Shown here in pieces: positions 4,237-33,617 of a stretch of 57,312 bases of DNA. The DNA is from an uncultured Armatimonadota bacterium (GTDB lineage Bacteria; Armatimonadota; Fimbriimonadia; Fimbriimonadales; Fimbriimonadaceae): assembly GCA_903927025.1 (NCBI GenBank), contig CAIYLG010000058.1, forward strand, positions 1 to 57,312, given 5' to 3'. Made by a program: the position numbers and the translations under genes. How positions within the stretch are numbered: the first letter of the stretch is position 1; each line of letters starts with the position of its first letter. The notes under the pieces were generated by a model. That model worked only from the letters and a program-made list of their open reading frames with translations, did not search any database and had not been told where the DNA came from.

Positions 4237-5154
4237 AACCAAAGGAGTGCGGGATTTATCACGCTTGCGGCCCGGGCTTCAGCACGGGTCAAACTTCTCC
4301 CAAACAAGCGAAGACACCCGCGCACTGCACGGCACGTCAAACGCCCAAATTGCGACCTCTTCCCGCAATTTCCAAGTCATTTCGACTTTCAGAATTGCCT
4401 TAACTCCACCGCCAAAGCGCAGGATCGGTGCATAGCTTCGCCTTCACAGGATTCCACTCGATGCAGCTTCGAGTTCTGTCGAAATGCTCACTGGTGCGTA
4501 TCAGTCGGTCAAAGAATCCTGGTTGCCACAGTCTTCCGGACCGACTCATCTGGCGATTAATTTCCCGAGAGGATGCCCCTTTCAAGCGCCTTACAACTTC
4601 CCCCACCGACAACTCCGCCGGTGAAAGGATGAGATGAACATGATTGGGCATGATCACCCAGCAGTGGAGGTCGAACATAGCTCCGTGTCCTTCGAAAAGC
4701 ACCTCTTGGACGGCATCGGCAACTTTTGGTGCGGACATGAGGCCCTCTCCAGAACCCGAATCACAGTGCGACTCAATTCTCCGGGCGATTTCAGCCTTTC
4801 GGAATGAATCTTGCTCGCGACTCAATTCCTCTTGCCAACGTTCGATGGCTTCACCCGGGACAGCATCGGCGAGCCGCCAGGTGATGAACTGAGGAGACCT
4901 GCCTGCATCAAAATGCGGCAGGTAGCCTCTCGAATAGCGGCCTCTCAATTCTCCCATTCGAGTCATCATACGCCTCTGAATCGGTTTCCAAAAGTGGCAC
5001 CTATCAATTGTTGGGCCGGAAACCATTTTGGCGAACCAACCTCGTTCTGCTGAATTAGAGGTTTTTATGTCGTTCGTAGATCTCGTATCCATAAGGAAAA
5101 TGCCGGCGCTGAAGCACCGGCGGCAAGCGTGATAAATCCCGCACTCCTTTGGTT
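4237..5154 (-). mobile_element. RAYT/REP element bounded by 32-bp perfect inverted repeats
   Basis: The transposase gene 4400-4966 is framed by a perfect 32-bp inverted repeat, 4237-4268 and 5123-5154 (core AAAGGAGTGCGGGATTTATC). Just inside each arm is an imperfect palindrome, CCCGgGCT-tc-AGCaCGGG at 4271-4288 and CCGGcGCT-ga-AGCaCCGG at 5103-5120, with one mismatch at the same stem level. This REP-palindrome-plus-inverted-flank layout is the expected arrangement of a REP unit around its RAYT. No target-site duplication was identified, and the gene inside has lost its catalytic tyrosine. Confidence 0.75.
4400..4966 (-). CDS. REP-associated tyrosine transposase (RAYT), catalytic Tyr replaced by Cys
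   Basis: A Y1/HUH-superfamily (IS200-like) transposase of the RAYT branch. Signature blocks are RGYLPHFD near the N-terminus, WVIMPNHVHLIL with the metal-binding HVH pair at residues 109/111, GRLWQPGFFDRLIR, and IEWNPVKAK at the end. In this family the strand-cleaving tyrosine precedes the I-E-x-NPVKA block (as in DYIENNPVKAGL); here that position is Cys 168 (codon TGC). Single-strand cleavage by the usual route should thus be lost. The start at 4966 is chosen for AGAGG six bases upstream; the frame extends to 5092. It sits inside the inverted-repeat element 4237-5154 and was possibly retained as a DNA-binding protein or is decaying. Confidence 0.8.
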   Translation of the reverse strand: MTRMGELRGRYSRGYLPHFDAGRSPQFITWRLADAVPGEAIERWQEELSREQDSFRKAEIARRIESHCDSGSGEGLMSAPKVADAVQEVLFEGHGAMFDLHCWVIMPNHVHLILSPAELSVGEVVRRLKGASSREINRQMSRSGRLWQPGFFDRLIRTSEHFDRTRSCIEWNPVKAKLCTDPALWRWS

Positions 5155-5164
5155 GGTGGAAGAT

Positions 5165-5932
5165 CTAGAACGCCTGAAACTCGCCGTACAACTCGTGCCC
5201 GTCAAACGCCTGGCGCATGGCGCCGAAGGGGCGCCAGCGGGAGTGACCGTCACAGTAGGAGCCGTTGGTGCCGTTGCCGTGGCGAGTTGACGCGATTGCG
5301 AATACCGGGACTCCCAGGTCTTGAGCGCTCGGGAGGGCGGTGGTGTAGGGGTTGCCGTTTGGGTCGCCCACCTCACCGAGCCAGGGATGGTAGTGCACGT
5401 CGCAGTCGGCATTGTTGCGCTCGTTGATGTACACCGACTGGCTGGGGGCGGTCACCTGGCTCTGGGTCATCCCGAACAGGTAGTAGGCGTTCAGGATTGC
5501 GCTGCTGAGATACCCAGGCGCAGGAGGAGGAGCACCGTTGGCGAGGCAGTTTCCGCTGGCATCCAGCAGCTTGAGTCCATGAGCATCGGGGTCCGACGGG
5601 CAGTAGTAAATCTGAGTCTTGTTGACGTCCTTTGAGGCCATGTACGGCAGTATCGCAAGCAGCGGTGAACCGTAGTCCACGCTCTCAAGTTGGGCGTCCG
5701 CGTCGTCTACGACTGGATTGCTGGTCGCAGGATGCTCCTGAGGATACTTGTCATCGTAGTCGCCCAAATACAGCATCAGCGCAATGCCGATCTGCTTTCC
5801 GTTCGAGAGGCAGGTGGTCTTCTTGGCGGCCTCTTTCGCCTGGGCGAATACGGGGAACAGGACGGCGGCCAGAATCGCGATGATCGCAATCACGACGAGA
5901 AGTTCGATAAGGGTAAAGGCTTTGGATTTCAA
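5165..5932 (-). CDS. Type II pseudopilin, DUF1559-like
   Basis: A 255-residue pseudopilin. The start is TTG at 5932, because a perfect AAGGAGG lies five bases upstream; the frame runs further but without a ribosome site. Residues 1-33 form the class III signal: short basic leader KSKA, then FTLIELLVV with glutamate at +5 and a hydrophobic helix reaching [12 protein letters not shown]. The globular part has the [24 protein letters not shown] block and a C-terminal [20 protein letters not shown] segment of the DUF1559 type. Such proteins are processed by prepilin peptidase and belong to T4P/T2S-like machines or are surface-exposed; in Armatimonadota and Planctomycetota they are highly multiplied and mostly unassigned. 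It is apparently monocistronic. Confidence 0.88.
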
Positions 5933-6021
5933 GTTTTCCTCCTTGGGAGGCGGGGCTGAATCGCTTATTAACTGACGATTCAACGGACAGGAATTCGGGA
6001 CACAACGGTCCCAGGAATTGC

Positions 6022-6444
6022 CTAAGCCGCGACAGGAGGAGGGGTTGGAGGGGTCCTGTCGGCGGAGGACTCGGCGACGGCGTATCCGATGGGCTGTGTG
6101 ACTGTCGGGATCGCGGTTGGAAACTCTAGGCGAACCGGCTCTGAAGCGAAGACCTCAAACTTGGGAGCGGTAGACGATTCTTGCTTGGGTGCCTTCTTCT
6201 CTGCGCATCGGCATTGAAGAAATCCCTTCTCGCCAGCCATGGGAGCCCGATGGATGTGCCCAATCACTTTGCCGCAACAGTCCTTGATGGCAACATCGAT
6301 GGTTTGAACCGATGCAGTCGGACACTGGGTCCCCAGTGCGGTTGCCGGAAATGTCTGGAGGGAAGCGCACAAGAACAGGCATACCGCCAAAAGGATTTGC
6401 GGAATTCCGGATACCCGAACCCAAAGCGTCTTCAGTGAGCGCAC
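6022..6444 (-). CDS. Small secreted Cys-containing hypothetical protein
   Basis: About 140 residues if GTG 6444 is the start, chosen because an N-terminal signal ([25 protein letters not shown]) follows it and because the upstream open frame runs through the infA terminator. The mature part carries a CC pair ([15 protein letters not shown]), a CRC motif and a proline-rich C-terminal tail ending PPTPPPVAA. This points to an exported or periplasmic small protein, possibly metal-binding through the Cys and His residues. No family is recognised and the start is uncertain. Confidence 0.5.
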
Positions 6445-6587
6445 TTCTGATCGGAAGTATACCGACGGATTATTGCCGCCTAATCGAGACGGGCGGGCGC
6501 GAGCTTCCGACCGGACGCAGAGTCTGGTAATTGTTACTGCTTGTTTAGCCCGGTGCGCGTCCATAAGGACGGGGTTAAGACCCCATC

Positions 6588-6610
6588 TCAAAAGCGGGTT
6601 AAATGCCCGC
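6588..6610 (-). terminator. Intrinsic terminator after infA
   Basis: On the minus strand a GCGGG-catttaa-CCCGC stem is followed by TTTTG, about 80 bases past the infA stop. A second small hairpin, GGGGT-ctta-ACCCC, follows at 6571-6584. These are the expected end of the long ribosomal protein operon. Confidence 0.55.
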
Positions 6611-6689
6611 GCTCCCATCGGGGAACGCGGTGTGTTGATTTGCCCCACGCCCAAGAGCCTGGAAGCCCCAATGGGCCGTACTACCTTCC

Positions 6690-14138: not shown

Positions 14139-14727
14139 GGTTCCCTGACCGATAGGCGTCCGAATCCATATACTTGTGCCCCCGGAAGTCTGCACTTTTT
14201 GTCTCTCTGGACCCTTTTCGCTACCCGCGACAGGATCTATTAATGCCCCAGTCCCACGCCGGCATCTACGTCCACTTCATTTTCTCGACAAGGGACCGCG
14301 CCCCGCTCTTGAGAGAATCCGGTCTCAGAAGCGAAATGCATCGGGTTCTGAACGGCATCTCTCGTGACCTCAACTCCGAAGCCATTCAGATCGGCGGTGT
14401 CGAGGATCATGTCCACGCTCTCGTTCGCCTTAACCGAACCGTCTCCTGTTCGGACTGGGTCAAGGAATCAAAGCGCCGATCCAGCATGTGGGCAAAGCGT
14501 CGAGATCCTTCCTTAGCGGATTTCGGATGGCAGTCTGGGTTCGGGGCATTCTCTCTTTCCCGGGGCGGGATTGAAGCCACGACTCACTACATCCTCAATC
14601 AGGAGGAACACCACCGGAGGGTTTCTTTTAAAGAGGAGTACCTTTCATTCCTTGCCGAGCATGAGATTGAATACGACCCGAGATACATATGGGAATGAGG
14701 ATGCGGACGTTTTTCGGTCAGGGAACC
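14139..14727 (+). mobile_element. RAYT 2 element with inverted ends
   Basis: The transposase gene 14243-14698 is bounded by an imperfect inverted repeat: 14139-14165 (GGTTCCCTGACCG... ending GCGTCCG) and 14702-14727 (CGGACG...CGGTCAGGGAACC). The 13-base tip GGTTCCCTGACCG is perfect. Immediately outside lie REP copies a and b in opposite orientation. This is the canonical REP-RAYT-REP arrangement and identifies the REP family served by this transposase. Confidence 0.7.
14243..14698 (+). CDS. IS200-like / REP-associated tyrosine transposase
   Basis: A 151-residue Y1 (HUH) transposase. SHAGIYVHFIFSTRDR at the N-terminus, the metal-binding pair in GVEDHVHALV (His 56 and 58), FGWQSGFGAFSLS, and THYILNQEEHH with the catalytic Tyr 116 are all present, followed by F-K-E-E-Y. 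It therefore looks catalytically complete, unlike the RAYT at 4400. ATG 14243 is chosen for AGGA eight bases upstream; the frame extends to 14174 without such a site. Such proteins cut and join single-stranded REP DNA; the flanking REP copies support that role here. Confidence 0.85.
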   Translation: MPQSHAGIYVHFIFSTRDRAPLLRESGLRSEMHRVLNGISRDLNSEAIQIGGVEDHVHALVRLNRTVSCSDWVKESKRRSSMWAKRRDPSLADFGWQSGFGAFSLSRGGIEATTHYILNQEEHHRRVSFKEEYLSFLAEHEIEYDPRYIWE

Positions 14728-29038: not shown

Positions 29039-29042
29039 CAGG

Positions 29043-29675
29043 TTAACCAGCATTCTGGTCAATCATCCACTGAATCTGGTCGAGGCTTGCGGGACCGTAG
29101 ACTTGTGCCTTCTGGCCGACTGTCGCGAGGACGTAAAATGACGGGGTGGCATTCACCTTAAACTCTTTAGCGACAGACTGATCCAAAGTAACGTTAAGCG
29201 CTGCCGCGTCAAGGTCCTGTTTGGCGAGCTTATGCTCTTTGCTGATCTTGTCTAAAAGGTCGGTTGTGATTTTGGAATCGTAGGAATAGAGCTGGTCATG
29301 TACCTTCCAATAGTCATAGCGGCATGCCATGGCAATGGAAGCGGCTTTCTTTGCGAGTGGATGCTTCTCCAAGGGGAAGTTGCGGAAGACAAATGCGAGC
29401 GAATCCTTATTCTTATTAAGAAGGTCAACCACTTTGGGGGCATTCTGCGCACATGGAGGGCATTGATAGTCGCCAAACTCGACGAGCACGTACTTGGGCA
29501 TTCCAGCGCCTCGCAGCGGCATGATTGAGCTCATGACCATTTTGGGATCAACCGAGACACTCGGGGGCATATTCTCAGCGAAGACCTTCTTGGTATAGAG
29601 TTGCCAGCACACTCCTAAGCTAATGCAGGCGACGACGCAAAGAATAAAAGCCTTGGACTGCATAAGTGCCTTCAA
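29043..29675 (-). CDS. DsbA-like thioredoxin-fold oxidoreductase, exported
   Basis: A 210-residue protein with an N-terminal signal-anchor (AFILCVVACISLGVCW) and a DsbA/BdbD-type thioredoxin domain. The active site is CPPC at residues 72-75 (GDYQCPPCAQNAP) and the cis-proline loop is NATPSFYV; FRNFPLEKHPLAKKAA between them is typical. Such proteins make or isomerise disulfides outside the cytoplasm. TTG 29675 is chosen: AGGAG stands seven bases upstream and the codon overlaps the pseudopilin stop (TTGA). It is the last gene of the Cys-rich cassette, so the likely client is the 12-cysteine product encoded upstream (inference). Confidence 0.85.
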   Translation of the reverse strand: MKALMQSKAFILCVVACISLGVCWQLYTKKVFAENMPPSVSVDPKMVMSSIMPLRGAGMPKYVLVEFGDYQCPPCAQNAPKVVDLLNKNKDSLAFVFRNFPLEKHPLAKKAASIAMACRYDYWKVHDQLYSYDSKITTDLLDKISKEHKLAKQDLDAAALNVTLDQSVAKEFKVNATPSFYVLATVGQKAQVYGPASLDQIQWMIDQNAG

Positions 29676-30331
29676 TACCAATCTCCTGAAGTTGTCGGCA
29701 CGAAGTTAGTGCCCCATAAATTCTTCGTGTCCAGCTGAGCGTGTGTGTCCGCGAATAGCAGATTCCGATCTCCCGGCATTGAAGCTGTTGCGGGCCCATG
29801 CACGGCTGCGTAGTCACAAAACAGAATGGCGTCCGACGAGCCGAGTTGCTCATGACCGGTGAGCAAAACTGCCGTTACGTCATCGAAATCGAAGCTCGAC
29901 CCGAAAGTCTCGAAATAGGTCGGCTTCCACTGCAGGTTGGCTGGAAGAGCCGTGTTCTCAGCGAGAAAGATGGGCTCGACCTTATCCATGGCGCATTTCC
30001 ATACCCCGGCAGTGACCTTGTAGGGAAGCAGGACGGTCTCTATGGTCTGGAGCTTCACGGCCTCCCGGAAGAGGGTGCCTCTTTGGCTCTCTGGAGTCGC
30101 CTGTGCAGTGAACTTGGTCCGGGCAGATACTGCATAAGGAAGCCTATCTTCCCAATCTGCGCGATAGAGGGAGCTTGCCACGCCTACTTGGCGGAGTTGC
30201 TGGATGCATGAACTGCTGTGACCAGACGACTTTGCACTGGCAAAAACAGGAAACAGCAGCGCGGCAAGAATTGCCAGAATTGAAATCACTACCAAAAGCT
30301 CAATGACTGTAAAGGCAGATCTATTTTTCAT
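29672..30331 (-). CDS. Pseudopilin of Cys-rich cassette, copy A
   Basis: 219 residues. The class III signal NRSAFTVIELLVVISILAI with Glu at +5 is followed by PVFASAKSS and a DUF1559-like body. It aligns throughout with the copy-B pseudopilin at 31741, with conserved SCIQQLRQ, LPYAV...TKF, VEPxFLAEN, LQWKxTYFET, DAILFCDY, AVHGP and NLLFADxHAxLDTxNxWGT. Three cysteines (CIQQ, WKCAMD, FCDY) are shared by both copies. The start is ATG 30331, eight bases after the membrane-protein gene; its stop overlaps the DsbA-like start. It probably belongs to an export or surface-display machine for the small Cys-rich protein, but this is inference. Confidence 0.88.
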   Translation of the reverse strand: MKNRSAFTVIELLVVISILAILAALLFPVFASAKSSGHSSSCIQQLRQVGVASSLYRADWEDRLPYAVSARTKFTAQATPESQRGTLFREAVKLQTIETVLLPYKVTAGVWKCAMDKVEPIFLAENTALPANLQWKPTYFETFGSSFDFDDVTAVLLTGHEQLGSSDAILFCDYAAVHGPATASMPGDRNLLFADTHAQLDTKNLWGTNFVPTTSGDWY

Positions 30332-30338
30332 GATGCGT

Positions 30339-30890
30339 CTACTTCTTTGGTGCGGGCGGTTCGGTGAGCTTTAACCCGTTGACATCAAAGGACTGATAGC
30401 TTTGCCTAATGGCCGCATCTGAACTCTTTAGTCCCTGCTCATTGTACGTTTTCCAGCTCTCGTCGCCTAGTCCCTTCAGAAGTCTGATAGGAACGTGCCA
30501 ATCGCTTATAGAATTGGACTTTATAAAGTCCTTGGCGAGTTCGGTAGATTCAGCCTTGTGCGGATTATTCATGCGGAGGAAAGCCAAGGTCTGCATCGAC
30601 AGGATCTTGGCCCATTTCCCCCCCGACTTGTACGCCTCCATTGTCGTCTGCCAATCCGCCTCGCTCATGGCTCGCGTCTTCTCGGCCAACTCATCGATCC
30701 GCTGAGACTCTTCCATTAGGTGTCGGTTTAACCCGAACGCCTTTTCAACTTGCCTTCTCTGCAATTCTTCTCGACTGGGTATGGACTCAGCCAACAGAAT
30801 CGCGAGGGCAAGTGGAACCCCCATCCCTGCCAAAAGATATTTCAGCCATTGGAAACGCTGGACGAAATTAGAAGTCGTACGCATCGTCAT
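30339..30890 (-). CDS. Single-pass membrane protein of Cys-rich cassette, copy A
   Basis: 183 residues: a short polar N-terminus, one helix (WLKYLLAGMGVPLALAILLAES, about residues 15-36), then a helical extracytoplasmic part. Shared with copy B at 32397: PSREExQxRQVEKAF, a central LQTLAFLRxNNPH block, AKDFI, DWHxxIxLL, and GLxSSDxxIRQSY. No family is recognised. AAGGAAGGA precedes ATG 30890 by eight bases. The conserved helical region could be an adaptor between the small protein and the pseudopilin; that is a guess from gene order. Confidence 0.8.
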   Translation of the reverse strand: MTMRTTSNFVQRFQWLKYLLAGMGVPLALAILLAESIPSREELQRRQVEKAFGLNRHLMEESQRIDELAEKTRAMSEADWQTTMEAYKSGGKWAKILSMQTLAFLRMNNPHKAESTELAKDFIKSNSISDWHVPIRLLKGLGDESWKTYNEQGLKSSDAAIRQSYQSFDVNGLKLTEPPAPKK

Positions 30891-30905
30891 GCTGTTATTC
30901 CTTCC

Positions 30906-31166
30906 TTAGCAGGTACCAGCAGCTGCGCAACAGGCATCTGAACAGTTGATCAGGGCGCATGGCATAGGTGGGGTCGACTGGCTGTACCCAGCAGTACAGC
31001 CAGTCATACAACAAGCATAGGTATGACAGGCATTGCAGTTGACACCGACTACATTACAGCAGGTCTGATAACTACCGGGCTTGATTACAGGAAGGGCGAA
31101 TACCATCGCCGGAAGGCTGAGCAAGGCACCCATAAGGCACCAGAAATACTTGTCTTTTCGCTTCAT
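30906..31166 (-). CDS. Secreted 12-cysteine mini-protein precursor, copy A
   Basis: 86 residues. The start at ATG 31166 has GGAGG five bases upstream. A Sec signal peptide (residues 1-24: basic MKRKDK, hydrophobic core, VFA end) is followed by a 62-residue mature part beginning LPVIKPGSYQ with 12 cysteines in the pattern CC-x6-C-x2-C-x4-CC-x3-C-x12-C-x4-C-x3-CC-x5-C, ending at a C-terminal Cys. Copy B has the same length and all 12 cysteines in register, and 45 of 62 mature residues identical by eye. An even cysteine number and a neighbouring CPPC oxidoreductase suggest up to six disulfides. No known bacteriocin, toxin or cofactor-protein family is recognised. Confidence 0.85.
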   Translation of the reverse strand: MKRKDKYFWCLMGALLSLPAMVFALPVIKPGSYQTCCNVVGVNCNACHTYACCMTGCTAGYSQSTPPMPCALINCSDACCAAAGTC

Positions 31167-31181
31167 AACGTCCTCCAAATG

Positions 31182-31197
31182 GGCCCATCATTGGGCC
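31182..31197. promoter_or_regulatory. Perfect hairpin in the leader of the copy A mini-protein gene
   Basis: GGCCCA-tcat-TGGGCC lies just upstream of the GGAGG ribosome site of the gene starting at 31166. In the mRNA it would form a 6-bp GC-rich stem about ten bases before the Shine-Dalgarno, a position suited to translational control or mRNA stabilisation. Confidence 0.4.
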
Positions 31198-31740
31198 TGC
31201 GCAAATCTTAAGACTTGAGTCCTAGCAGTATCCGGAATATCAATCTTATTGCTAATTTTAGCGCATTATCGAATCATATGGCATATATATAACAGCATCA
31301 GAGAAGGTGCTGCTCCTGTCTTTATACGTTAGAAGTATCTAACCTTGTGTGGCTAAAGTGCCGACGCACCGGATGCTTGATGCACAAGAGGTGTGAACTG
31401 GGACTTTGAACACCTCGTGGTCAGGTGCCCCATGTGACAAGCACTACCCTTGGAACGAGACTCGCGTTACGCTCAGCCCTGTAACCACGCTGGGTATCCA
31501 GCTGCTCGCTTACAGGAACCCCTGCGGGCGATGGTCAACGAGGAGATTCTCTCACGTCCATGACAAACACCGCCCTCACAGGGTCCTTGAGTCAGCTTAA
31601 GTTGCCTTTCAAGTTGCGCGACATGGCACAGATAACCGGTTGTGCGGCTACATACTTCTCAGCGCTTCGATATGAGCCCCGATGACGAAGTTGTGGAGAT
31701 CGTGTTTGTTGCCGCTGTACTGCCGAGCACCCGGCAAAGC
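31198..31740. other. Spacer between the two cassette copies
   Basis: About 540 bases with no convincing gene. The part next to copy A (31210-31310) is AT-rich and includes GCATATATATAACAG, a plausible promoter region, though no clear -35/-10 pair was found. The rest shows no recognisable domain in any frame; there is no second dsbA-like gene or obvious remnant of one after copy B. Confidence 0.45.
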
Positions 31741-32400
31741 TCAGTGCCAAAGGCCAGAAATAGGTGGAAGAAAGCGCGTTCCCCACATGTTATGCGTATC
31801 CAGCTTCGCGTGAAAGTCGGCAAATAGCAGATTGCGCTCTCCACCACCTTCAGCCTGAATTGGACCGTGAACCGCCGGATAGTCGCAAAATAAAATTGCA
31901 TCCGCATGCGGTGATGCAATTTGTCCTCCGTTCAAGACGGCGCTGACATCATCATAGTCATAACTGGCCCCAATCGTTTCGAAATAGGTGGTCTTCCACT
32001 GCAGCACGGGAGGGAGGACATAGTTCTCCGCCAAGAACAGAGGTTCGACTCTGTCCAACGAACAGCGCCACAAAGGCTTAGGCGCACTGTACGGAGCCAG
32101 AACCGTTACAATTGACGGCAGATTAATCGCCGCCTGGAATAGGGGGCCACGTTCCTGTGTCGGAGTAAAGGTGGCAACAAACTTCGTATTGGGAGCCACG
32201 GCGTAGGGTATCCGGTCATCTGCGTCAGCCGAGTACATCTCTGATGCAATTCCAATTTGCCTAAGTTGCTGGATGCATGAAGTTCCATAGGCAGCTCCCT
32301 TCGCCTGAGCCACGACAGGAAACATGAGTGCTGAGAGTACACAAAGGATCGAGATAACGACCAATAGTTCAACCAGGGTAAACCCCTGCTGAAGCCTCAC
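31741..32400 (-). CDS. Pseudopilin of Cys-rich cassette, copy B
   Basis: 219 residues, the same length as copy A at 29672. Its N-terminus is QQGFTLVELLVVISILCVLSALMFPVVAQAK, a canonical G-FTLVE prepilin peptidase site. The body shares the SCIQQLRQ, VEPLFLAEN, LQWKTTYFET, DAILFCDY, AVHGP and NLLFADFHAKLDT blocks with copy A and ends in Trp-His where copy A ends in Trp-Tyr. It overlaps the membrane-protein gene by four bases (ATGA). No oxidoreductase gene follows this copy. Confidence 0.88.
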   Translation of the reverse strand: MRLQQGFTLVELLVVISILCVLSALMFPVVAQAKGAAYGTSCIQQLRQIGIASEMYSADADDRIPYAVAPNTKFVATFTPTQERGPLFQAAINLPSIVTVLAPYSAPKPLWRCSLDRVEPLFLAENYVLPPVLQWKTTYFETIGASYDYDDVSAVLNGGQIASPHADAILFCDYPAVHGPIQAEGGGERNLLFADFHAKLDTHNMWGTRFLPPISGLWH

Positions 32401-32972
32401 TTGGTCTCAGTCCCCGCCTGCACTGAAGCTTGCGGCAACTTCAGAACATTGGATGAATAGAACATGTAGCTCTGCCTAATGACCGGATCTGAACTACTCA
32501 ATCCTTGATTGTTATAGCTAGACCACGAAGGATCGTTGAGTCGATTGAGCAGCGTAATCGCTGGATGCCAGTCGGCAATCCCGTTGTGGTCAATAAAGTC
32601 CTTCGCCATGGCGATCGACTCTTTGGGATGAGGGTTGTTCTGACGTAAAAAAGCCAAGGTCTGTAAGCACATTTCCTTGGCAAATTTGTTCCCTTCGTTG
32701 TAGGCCTGAAGATTGGTCTTCCAGTCCGACTCTGTAATCGAGTGGCGCTTCTCGGCGAGCTCACAGATTCGCGTTTCTGCGCTCATGCTGTTTTGCGAGA
32801 GGCTAAATGCCTTCTCAACCTGGCGATGCTGGACCTCTTCTCTGCTCGGGCTCGCAGTCGACACAAAGATGAGCAGAGACAAGGGAATACCCATGCCCGC
32901 AAGGACATACTTGGGCCACGTTCGAGCAGGAGATTCGGGCGCGTCGGAGCGGCCCCTTACCGATGTCGCCAC
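32397..32972 (-). CDS. Single-pass membrane protein of Cys-rich cassette, copy B
   Basis: 191 residues and clearly homologous to copy A at 30339: one N-terminal helix (WPKYVLAGMGIPLSLLIFVST), then PSREEVQHRQVEKAF, LAEKRHSITESDWKTN, LQTLAFLRQNNPH, AMAKDFI, and GLSSSDPVIRQSY. It contains two cysteines (RICELAE, EMCLQ) that copy A lacks. The GTG start lies one base after the stop of the Cys-rich gene and its stop overlaps the pseudopilin start, so the three are cotranslated. Confidence 0.8.
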   Translation of the reverse strand: MATSVRGRSDAPESPARTWPKYVLAGMGIPLSLLIFVSTASPSREEVQHRQVEKAFSLSQNSMSAETRICELAEKRHSITESDWKTNLQAYNEGNKFAKEMCLQTLAFLRQNNPHPKESIAMAKDFIDHNGIADWHPAITLLNRLNDPSWSSYNNQGLSSSDPVIRQSYMFYSSNVLKLPQASVQAGTETK

Positions 32973-32973
32973 G

Positions 32974-33234
32974 TTAGCAGGTACCCGCCGCGGCGCAGCA
33001 TTGATCGCTACAATTGATCAGCGAACAAGCCGATGGTGGCGTAGAAGCGTTATAGCCCGCTGTGCAACCTGTCATGCAGCAGGCGTAGGATTTGCAGGCT
33101 GTGCAGTCTTGATGAACCACTTGGCAACAGACTTGATAGTTGCCGGGTCTTATTGTGGGCAGCGCGAACACTACAGCAGGAAGGCTCAATAGAACGCCAA
33201 GCGAGAGCCAAAAACACTTATCCTTTCTTCTCAA
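32974..33234 (-). CDS. Secreted 12-cysteine mini-protein precursor, copy B
   Basis: 86 residues starting at TTG 33234 with GGGGG five bases upstream, the exact counterpart of the GGAGG-ATG of copy A; an open frame runs further upstream but is unsupported. The signal peptide (RRKDKCFWLSLGVLLSLPAVVFA) is followed by a 62-residue mature part beginning LPTIRPGNYQ. All 12 cysteines match copy A in spacing, and YACCMTGCTAGY, LINCSD and CCAAAGTC are identical in both. The CxxCH of copy A is CxxCK here, so it is not a heme site. It is the first gene of the copy B cassette. Confidence 0.85.
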   Translation of the reverse strand: MRRKDKCFWLSLGVLLSLPAVVFALPTIRPGNYQVCCQVVHQDCTACKSYACCMTGCTAGYNASTPPSACSLINCSDQCCAAAGTC

Positions 33235-33617
33235 CGAATCCCCCGGACAGCACACGCCTATACCAAGACAGCATACTGACCAGGCAGTACCATCTCGTGA
33301 GGCGAAAGCGTTTTTATCAGATTTACTACCTGTCTCGCCGAGAGCATGGCGAATCGCCACCTTCTCTCTCCCGACTCTAAGAAACCTAAGAACCAACCAA
33401 ATCTGAGATTCGAATCGTACACTCCCGCATTCATGCAGCAAGTACTTGATTCAAAGCATCAATCAGGTAGCTTCGGAACCCTAAGGCAATATCTTAACGC
33501 ATCACCAGCGTTTTTGTTGCATTTTTCGGACGACTTTTCCACATTGCCTTTGCTGAACGCATTAAGCGAACGATTTTGGTGCAATCCGGCGTATGAAAAG
33601 GTTTGCGAATCTTCCGA
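33235..33617. other. Intergenic region upstream of cassette copy B
   Basis: About 380 AT-richer bases between the cassette and the 3' end of argJ. On the minus strand GGTATAGG at about 33258-33265 is a possible -10 for the cassette, without a good -35. A 101-codon plus-strand frame (33346-33651) has no ribosome site or recognisable domain and overlaps argJ, so I do not call it. Confidence 0.4.

What the first reader, a model, noticed from the sequence alone, without database searches (positions are those of the whole stretch)
29043..33234. Tandemly duplicated cassette for a secreted 12-cysteine mini-protein with its own membrane protein, pseudopilin and DsbA-like partner
Two consecutive three-gene cassettes have the same order, strand and nearly identical gene lengths. 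They encode an 86-residue Sec precursor whose 62-residue mature part has 12 cysteines in identical register, a single-pass membrane protein, and a DUF1559-like pseudopilin. The second cassette is followed by a CPPC thioredoxin-fold gene whose start overlaps the pseudopilin stop. Between copies, mature peptides keep every Cys while surface positions vary (45 of 62 identical by eye), which implies purifying selection on a disulfide scaffold. I know of no described system that combines these four parts. Possible roles are a disulfide-rich effector or bacteriocin-like peptide, an adhesin tip, or a cofactor-bearing small subunit; all are inference.
Basis: partly seen in the sequence, partly recalled or inferred. 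Interest (0 to 1): 0.88.

Follow-up and report, generated by a model that had tools for sequence, protein, structure and literature searches.

The report
Pilin-linked cysteine-rich secreted mini-protein cassette
A patchily distributed set of bacterial genes makes a tiny exported protein built to be stapled by disulfide bonds, next to a membrane-anchored scaffold, a dedicated pilus-type protein and often a disulfide-making enzyme; the set recurs across the phylum Armatimonadota, appears undescribed, and its function has not been tested.

Summary
Two cassettes on the minus strand (33234-31741 and 31166-29043) encode a 12-Cys secreted mini-protein, a single-pass protein with HEAT-like repeats, and a pseudopilin; the second ends with a DsbA-like gene. 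Searches of 291 Armatimonadota genomes gave 28 such loci in 23 genomes. In all 28 the Cys-rich gene lies directly before the HEAT-type gene (one of those genes is broken, a few weakly supported); 24 have the pilin and 10 DsbA (one has VKOR instead). Elsewhere the HEAT-pilin pair occurs without the peptide. The peptides share no Pfam/NCBIfam family and diverge strongly, but keep an even Cys number and CX3C-X4-20-CX3C (23 of 24, versus 4.2 in shuffles), the signature of disulfide-stapled helical hairpins. In the window the double cassette is a low-GC insertion: two same-genus relatives have an empty site between argJ and a hydrolase gene. Several copies elsewhere carry stop codons. Most likely it is an accessory module in which DsbA staples a Sec-exported hairpin that a membrane scaffold and dedicated pseudopilin display or export on a type IV-type filament; antagonism or surface binding are the likeliest roles. 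Architecture and distribution are shown; the mechanism is inferred. No description was found in the papers searched.

The parts
32974..33234 (-). Cys-rich secreted mini-protein, copy 1 (86 aa precursor, TTG start, 62-aa mature part with 12 Cys)
32397..32972 (-). single-pass membrane protein with HEAT-like repeats, copy 1 (191 aa)
31741..32400 (-). pseudopilin, copy 1 (219 aa; prepilin cleavage after G before FTLVELLVV)
30906..31166 (-). Cys-rich secreted mini-protein, copy 2 (86 aa, ATG start with GGAGG)
30339..30890 (-). single-pass membrane protein with HEAT-like repeats, copy 2 (183 aa)
29672..30331 (-). pseudopilin, copy 2 (219 aa; A instead of G at the cleavage site)
29043..29681 (-). membrane-anchored DsbA/BdbD-like thiol oxidoreductase, CPPC (212 aa from TTG; ATG at 29663 possible)
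29039..33617 (.). insertion carrying both cassettes, between argJ and an alpha/beta-hydrolase gene; GC 51.5% against 57.7-57.8% in the flanking genes; empty in two same-genus genomes

Best explanation
An accessory, probably horizontally acquired module for making and displaying or exporting a disulfide-stapled mini-protein. Steps: (1) Sec exports the Cys-rich precursor [signal sequence seen; export inferred]. (2) The cassette DsbA, or a VKOR-type enzyme or housekeeping oxidase where DsbA is missing, forms the disulfides that staple a helical hairpin [even Cys number and CX3C...CX3C shown; bonds inferred]. (3) The membrane-anchored HEAT-repeat protein holds the peptide and/or the pilin at the inner membrane [domain shown; contact inferred]. 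(4) The dedicated pseudopilin is incorporated into a type IV pilus / T2SS-like filament and carries the folded peptide to the surface or out, as the minor pilins TcpB and CofB do for TcpF and CofJ [inferred from linkage]. The peptide most likely acts outside the cell, in competition with other microbes or in binding a surface.
For: Non-circular linkage test: a profile of only four membrane proteins found ten further membrane-protein loci with a pilin in the phylum, and eight had a Cys-rich secreted ORF directly upstream. Among 321 genes tested in fetched loci, a secreted Cys-rich small ORF lay upstream only of cassette genes (25 hits, none elsewhere). 24 intact precursors: 23 have CX3C-X4-20-CX3C against 4.2 in shuffles; 21 have an even Cys count with an automatic cleavage rule, 23 after hand correction. 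AF2 puts the CX3C motifs in two helices. DsbA profile matches 3gyk and BdbD; in one genome (G131) a VKOR gene follows the Cys and membrane genes instead of pilin and DsbA. Purifying selection on the peptide, dN/dS about 0.24 against 0.09 (membrane protein) and 0.07 (pilin). Empty site and low GC. Precedents: TcpB-TcpF (PMC9565799), CofB as adapter for CofJ (PMC8179133), DsbA-dependent EntV (PMC6606811).
Against: No pilus or secretion machinery gene lies in the cassettes, so the filament step rests on the pilin alone. DsbA is missing at most loci. Membrane-pilin pairs exist without the peptide, so the pilin is not solely its carrier. No expression data. AF2 confidence is modest (mean pLDDT 64-67) and Foldseek finds no significant PDB match. 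No direct sign of toxicity, adhesion or immunity.
Confidence: 0.48

Rival explanations
1. Bacteriocin-like antagonism with the HEAT membrane protein as immunity or anchor: the peptide is a released toxin and the pilin is only its exit route. (A narrower reading of the best explanation.)
For: Accessory island; patchy presence in 23 of 291 genomes; peptide evolves faster than its partners; repeated loss by stop codons in four Cys genes; loci with the membrane gene but no peptide could be orphan immunity genes; the Cys motif resembles plant alpha-hairpinin defence peptides.
Against: Peptides are mostly neutral or acidic by the automatic count, unlike cationic antimicrobial peptides; the membrane protein's constant partner is the pilin; no killing data; stop codons also hit pilin and membrane genes.
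Confidence: 0.3
2. The peptide is a structural part or folding helper of a specialised type IV filament (tip or pilin-capping subunit), not a released product; DsbA mainly oxidises the pilin, whose two cysteines are conserved in most cassettes.
For: Pilin and HEAT protein are the constant pair; C42 and C113 are invariant in 12 cassette pilins; in B. subtilis a disulfide stabilises the pilin ComGC, and BdbDC is required for competence (PMC7212644).
Against: The first of these cysteines is missing in the pilins of G004 and G168, whose cassettes do have DsbA; the peptide diverges strongly for a conserved structural interface.
Confidence: 0.17
3. The Cys-rich peptide binds metal (metallothionein-like or copper/zinc carrier) rather than forming disulfides.
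For: 10-12 Cys in about 60 residues.
Against: Exported, accompanied by DsbA or VKOR at 11 loci; CX3C spacing and even Cys number point to stapled helices; no metal transporter or sensor in the cassettes.
Confidence: 0.07
4. A RiPP precursor whose cysteines are cross-linked by a radical SAM enzyme, as in CXXX-repeat peptides (TIGR04117).
For: Two of 17 members match TIGR04117 weakly (best E 0.0021).
Against: No radical SAM gene seen next to the cassettes examined; Sec signal instead of a RiPP leader; DsbA or VKOR partners.
Confidence: 0.04

Closest known systems
TcpF-TcpB / CofJ-CofB (secreted protein carried by a type IVb minor pilin)
   Same: A secreted protein encoded beside a dedicated pilin
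   Different: Here no pilus machinery genes in the cassette; cargo is a 40-75 aa Cys-rich peptide; additional HEAT membrane protein and DsbA; no sequence relation was tested
alpha-hairpinins (plant disulfide-stapled helix-loop-helix defence peptides, e.g. BWI-2c)
   Same: CX3C-Xn-CX3C motif, predicted helix-loop-helix
   Different: 8-12 Cys including CC pairs, bacterial, Sec-type signal, encoded next to a pilin; only weak profile resemblance (E 0.29-6.8), probably analogy
BdbDC-dependent ComGC pilin and EntV/sublancin-type disulfide bacteriocins
   Same: DsbA/BdbD-like oxidoreductase serving a pilin or a small exported peptide
   Different: Here the oxidoreductase is encoded in the same cassette as both a pilin and a Cys-rich peptide
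PulG/DUF1559-like pseudopilins, expanded in Fimbriimonas (79 PulG-type genes in F. ginsengisoli, PMC4072686)
   Same: Cassette pilins belong to this broad kind (N_methyl domain)
   Different: On a tree they lie apart from the non-cassette best hits (branch 100/100), with long branches; the non-cassette set is itself one narrow group

Membership tests
type IV pilin / pseudopilin superfamily (gene 3) | prepilin N-terminal cleavage/methylation motif | tested here: met
   PF07963 E 8.9e-07 and 1.5e-07; TIGR02532 above cut-off
DUF1559 (PF07596) | match above the Pfam gathering score | tested here: not met
   12.4 bits against 23.3 for copy 1, none for copy 2
DsbA / Thioredoxin_4 oxidoreductase (gene 4) | thioredoxin fold with CxxC and cis-Pro | tested here: met
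   PF13462 50.8 bits; CxPC and a P of the (T/V)P motif invariant; solved relatives 3gyk, BdbD
HEAT/alphaRep repeat proteins (gene 2) | alpha-alpha repeat matching HEAT-type sequences | tested here: met
   profile A5 hits alphaRep chains, best E 2.7e-14; no Pfam HEAT match for the window copies alone
alpha-hairpinins | CX3C-X4-20-CX3C core motif | tested here: met
   23 of 24 members, 4.2 expected from shuffles; X was allowed to be Cys here
alpha-hairpinins | no CC next to the core and no three or more further Cys outside the motif (curation rule in PMC11591084) | tested here: not met
   CC pairs and 8-12 Cys in most members
alpha-hairpinins | helix-loop-helix fold with two disulfides | tested here: inconclusive
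   AF2 gives helices 26-39 and 48-59 of the mature peptide, mean pLDDT 67; no PDB fold match
CXXX-repeat radical SAM target (TIGR04117) | NCBIfam match and adjacent radical SAM maturase | tested here: not met
   P0001 no match, 2 of 17 members weak; no radical SAM gene seen beside the cassettes
pilin-carried secreted proteins (TcpF/CofJ type) | secreted protein binds its cognate minor pilin | not testable with these tools
   only genetic linkage is shown

The most novel reading that the evidence does not exclude
A new kind of pilus-coupled peptide system, so far seen only in Armatimonadota: mobile cassettes, each pairing a fast-diverging, disulfide-stapled hairpin mini-protein with its own scaffold, its own pseudopilin and often its own oxidative-folding enzyme, used as exchangeable weapons or binders on type IV filaments. 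It would also give one reason why these bacteria carry scores of pseudopilin genes.
Probability: 0.33. Interest if true: 0.88.

Novelty: new variant of a known kind. Interest (0 to 1): 0.72.

Why it matters
Genomes of this group carry dozens of pseudopilin genes without known purpose (79 PulG-type genes reported in Fimbriimonas ginsengisoli, PMC4072686). A recurring cassette that ties one pseudopilin subgroup to a secreted, disulfide-stapled mini-protein, a scaffold and a folding enzyme gives a concrete, testable idea: some pseudopilins are dedicated carriers. The peptides are also an unlabelled natural library of probably stable mini-protein scaffolds.

Tried and rejected
Known families: no match for the window peptide in Pfam, NCBIfam, PHROGs or PADLOC, and only a sub-threshold TIL hit for one relative in Pfam; weak NCBIfam hits of single members to unrelated toxin or resistance models (E 0.02-0.4) were judged chance. 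Close relatives by short patterns in genome contigs and viral contigs: none. A single-sequence search of 60 relatives gave only noise. Fold searches of both peptide models found nothing significant. A DsbA scan of genome contigs returned 80 loci from many phyla; the five with neighbouring membrane-protein and pilin genes were L139, L140, L156, L161 and L177, whose genomes match ones already reached in the Armatimonadota search. Control: 50 genomes reached through DsbA loci of other groups had no peptide match better than E 7e-4, against about 20 Armatimonadota genomes at E 1e-5 or better. Planctomycetota, rich in similar pilins, could not be searched. Recoding was considered for the in-frame stops, but TAA, TAG and TGA all occur, so decay is simpler. 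My recollection of Bacteroidota 'NVEALA' peptides with VKOR/DUF1573 neighbours found no paper in the library and is not used as evidence. Sigma-70 promoter scan: nothing above chance.

Full report
What is there. The seven genes are all on the minus strand. Cassette 1: Cys-rich 33234-32974, membrane protein 32972-32397, pseudopilin 32400-31741. Cassette 2: Cys-rich 31166-30906, membrane protein 30890-30339, pseudopilin 30331-29672, DsbA-like 29681-29043. The mature peptides share 45 of 62 residues and all 12 Cys; the partners are 56-58% identical. The start contexts and close packing look like a translated operon. Between the copies dN is 0.25 (peptide), 0.49 (membrane) and 0.38 (pilin) with saturated synonymous sites, so both copies have long been under purifying selection.

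The cassette is an insertion. In two same-genus genomes, G004 and G012, argC-argJ is followed directly by the hydrolase-folD pair, with 7 bp between argJ and the hydrolase gene or with overlap; in the window the 4.6 kb with both cassettes lie exactly between them. Its GC is 51.5% against 57.7 and 57.8% in the flanking argJ and hydrolase genes. No flanking repeats or integrase were recognised.

Conservation. The peptide alone finds only itself in 61 close genomes. A two-sequence profile over 291 Armatimonadota genomes found one clear outside hit, G105, with the same gene order but a stop after the signal peptide and another in the pilin. A profile of four membrane proteins (window, G014, G105), built without any further peptide, then found ten more membrane-protein loci followed by a pilin; eight had a secreted Cys-rich ORF directly upstream. 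Profiles enlarged from these and hand inspection bring the tally to 28 loci in 23 genomes: G000 (2), G102, G103 (2), G099, G105 (2), G108, G004, G109, G111, G030, G027, G164, G165, G159, G131, G172, G171, G168, G020, G013 (2), G014, G135, G122 (2). A HEAT-type membrane gene follows in all (broken in G168, weak in G014 C2 and inferred from it in G013 C6, divergent in G171, G020, G004), a pilin at 24, DsbA at 10, VKOR at one (G131; PF07884 E 5e-15). In G122 the two Cys-membrane pairs sit with DUF1573 and DUF2079 genes. Membrane-pilin loci without a peptide gene: G014 C7, G103 C28 and C120, G056 and relatives, and L177; membrane gene without pilin or peptide: G094, G096, G017, G180, G079. A search for secreted small ORFs with at least 6 Cys upstream of 321 genes in the fetched loci hit 25 genes, all first or second after a cassette peptide. 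In 50 genomes of other groups the peptide profile gave nothing better than E 7e-4.

What the proteins are. Peptide: no Pfam, NCBIfam, PHROGs or PADLOC family. Only cysteines are conserved (A9: C36, C53, C57, C79 invariant, C44 and C75 nearly so). 23 of 24 intact members have CX3C-X4-20-CX3C against a shuffle mean of 4.2 (maximum 9); one (G102) has the full six-Cys hairpinin pattern. Cys numbers after the signal peptide are even in 21 of 24 by a simple rule; two of the three exceptions become even with a more plausible cleavage site, the last (G014) has a Cys replaced by Tyr. AF2 places the motifs in helices 26-39 and 48-59 of the mature peptide, block-mean pLDDT 57-76 outside the first ten residues. 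The best sequence matches in the PDB are all weak, but include several alpha-hairpinins (BWI-2c, walnut vicilin hairpinins; E 0.29 to 6.8). I take this as a lead to fold type, not homology. Membrane protein: one TM segment, then alpha-alpha repeats matching alphaRep proteins (E 2.7e-14). DsbA: membrane-anchored, CPPC, closest solved relatives 3gyk and BdbD. Pilins: N_methyl domain; separated from the best-matching non-cassette pilins of the same phylum by a branch with 100/100 support, though many cassette branches are long and the comparison set is narrow.

Dynamics. Between G109 and G111 dN/dS is 0.24 for the peptide, 0.09 for the membrane protein and 0.07 for the pilin; G013/G014 peptides give 0.22. 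In-frame stops occur in the peptide genes of G105 (TAA), G027 (TGA), G164 (TAG) and G013 C1 (TAA), in the pilin of G105 (TAG) and in the membrane gene of G168. Patchy presence, insertion in the window, faster peptide change and repeated loss fit an accessory trait under changing selection.

Mechanism. Shown: linkage, signal sequences, Cys pattern, oxidoreductase, insertion. Inferred: oxidation by DsbA, docking on the HEAT protein, carriage by the pilin, action outside the cell. The carrier idea follows TcpB-TcpF (PMC9565799) and CofB-CofJ (discussed in PMC8179133); disulfide dependence of small secreted peptides follows EntV and DsbA (PMC6606811). Whether the peptide kills, binds or builds cannot be decided from sequence. 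The strongest objection is that HEAT-pilin pairs also exist without the peptide, so the peptide may be one of several cargoes of such pairs, or an added part of a filament.

Novelty. Library searches for combinations of Armatimonadetes/Armatimonadota, pseudopilin, cysteine-rich, pilin and DsbA found no description; most subscription papers are not covered. The parts are of known kinds; the four-part cassette and the peptide family appear undescribed.

Noticed in passing
window 5165-5983 (-) and 6022-6654 (-): Another pseudopilin beside a single-TM protein with CC and CxC motifs (DCCGKVIG...FLQCRC); a similar pair stands next to a Cys cassette in G014 (L266:1048-2254).
   Followed up: no
L245:2576-3208 and 5678-6265; L265:5714-6421; L264:2802-3134; L056:7667-8101: ECF-sigma or sigma-like genes adjoin several membrane-pilin loci (both G105 loci, G103 C120, G056); clear Pfam sigma matches at L245 and L265, none at L056 (broken or unlike), L264 not tested.
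   Followed up: partly
L251:4565-5629 (G131): VKOR-family protein with a long C-terminal part (CGGC motif) follows a Cys-membrane pair instead of pilin and DsbA.
   Followed up: partly
L252 (G122): Two Cys-membrane pairs near DUF1573 proteins and DUF2079 membrane proteins.
   Followed up: partly
G105 C1:2426436-2427900; L112, L113; L254; L246: Recurrent in-frame stop codons of all three kinds in cassette genes of different genomes.
   Followed up: partly
window 4400-5092 (-), 14174-14698 (+): ORFs that look like REP-associated / IS200-type transposases, judged by eye.
   Followed up: no
L073:1883-2329 (G229): Unrelated 148-aa secreted protein with 15 Cys and a GG-like leader motif.
   Followed up: no
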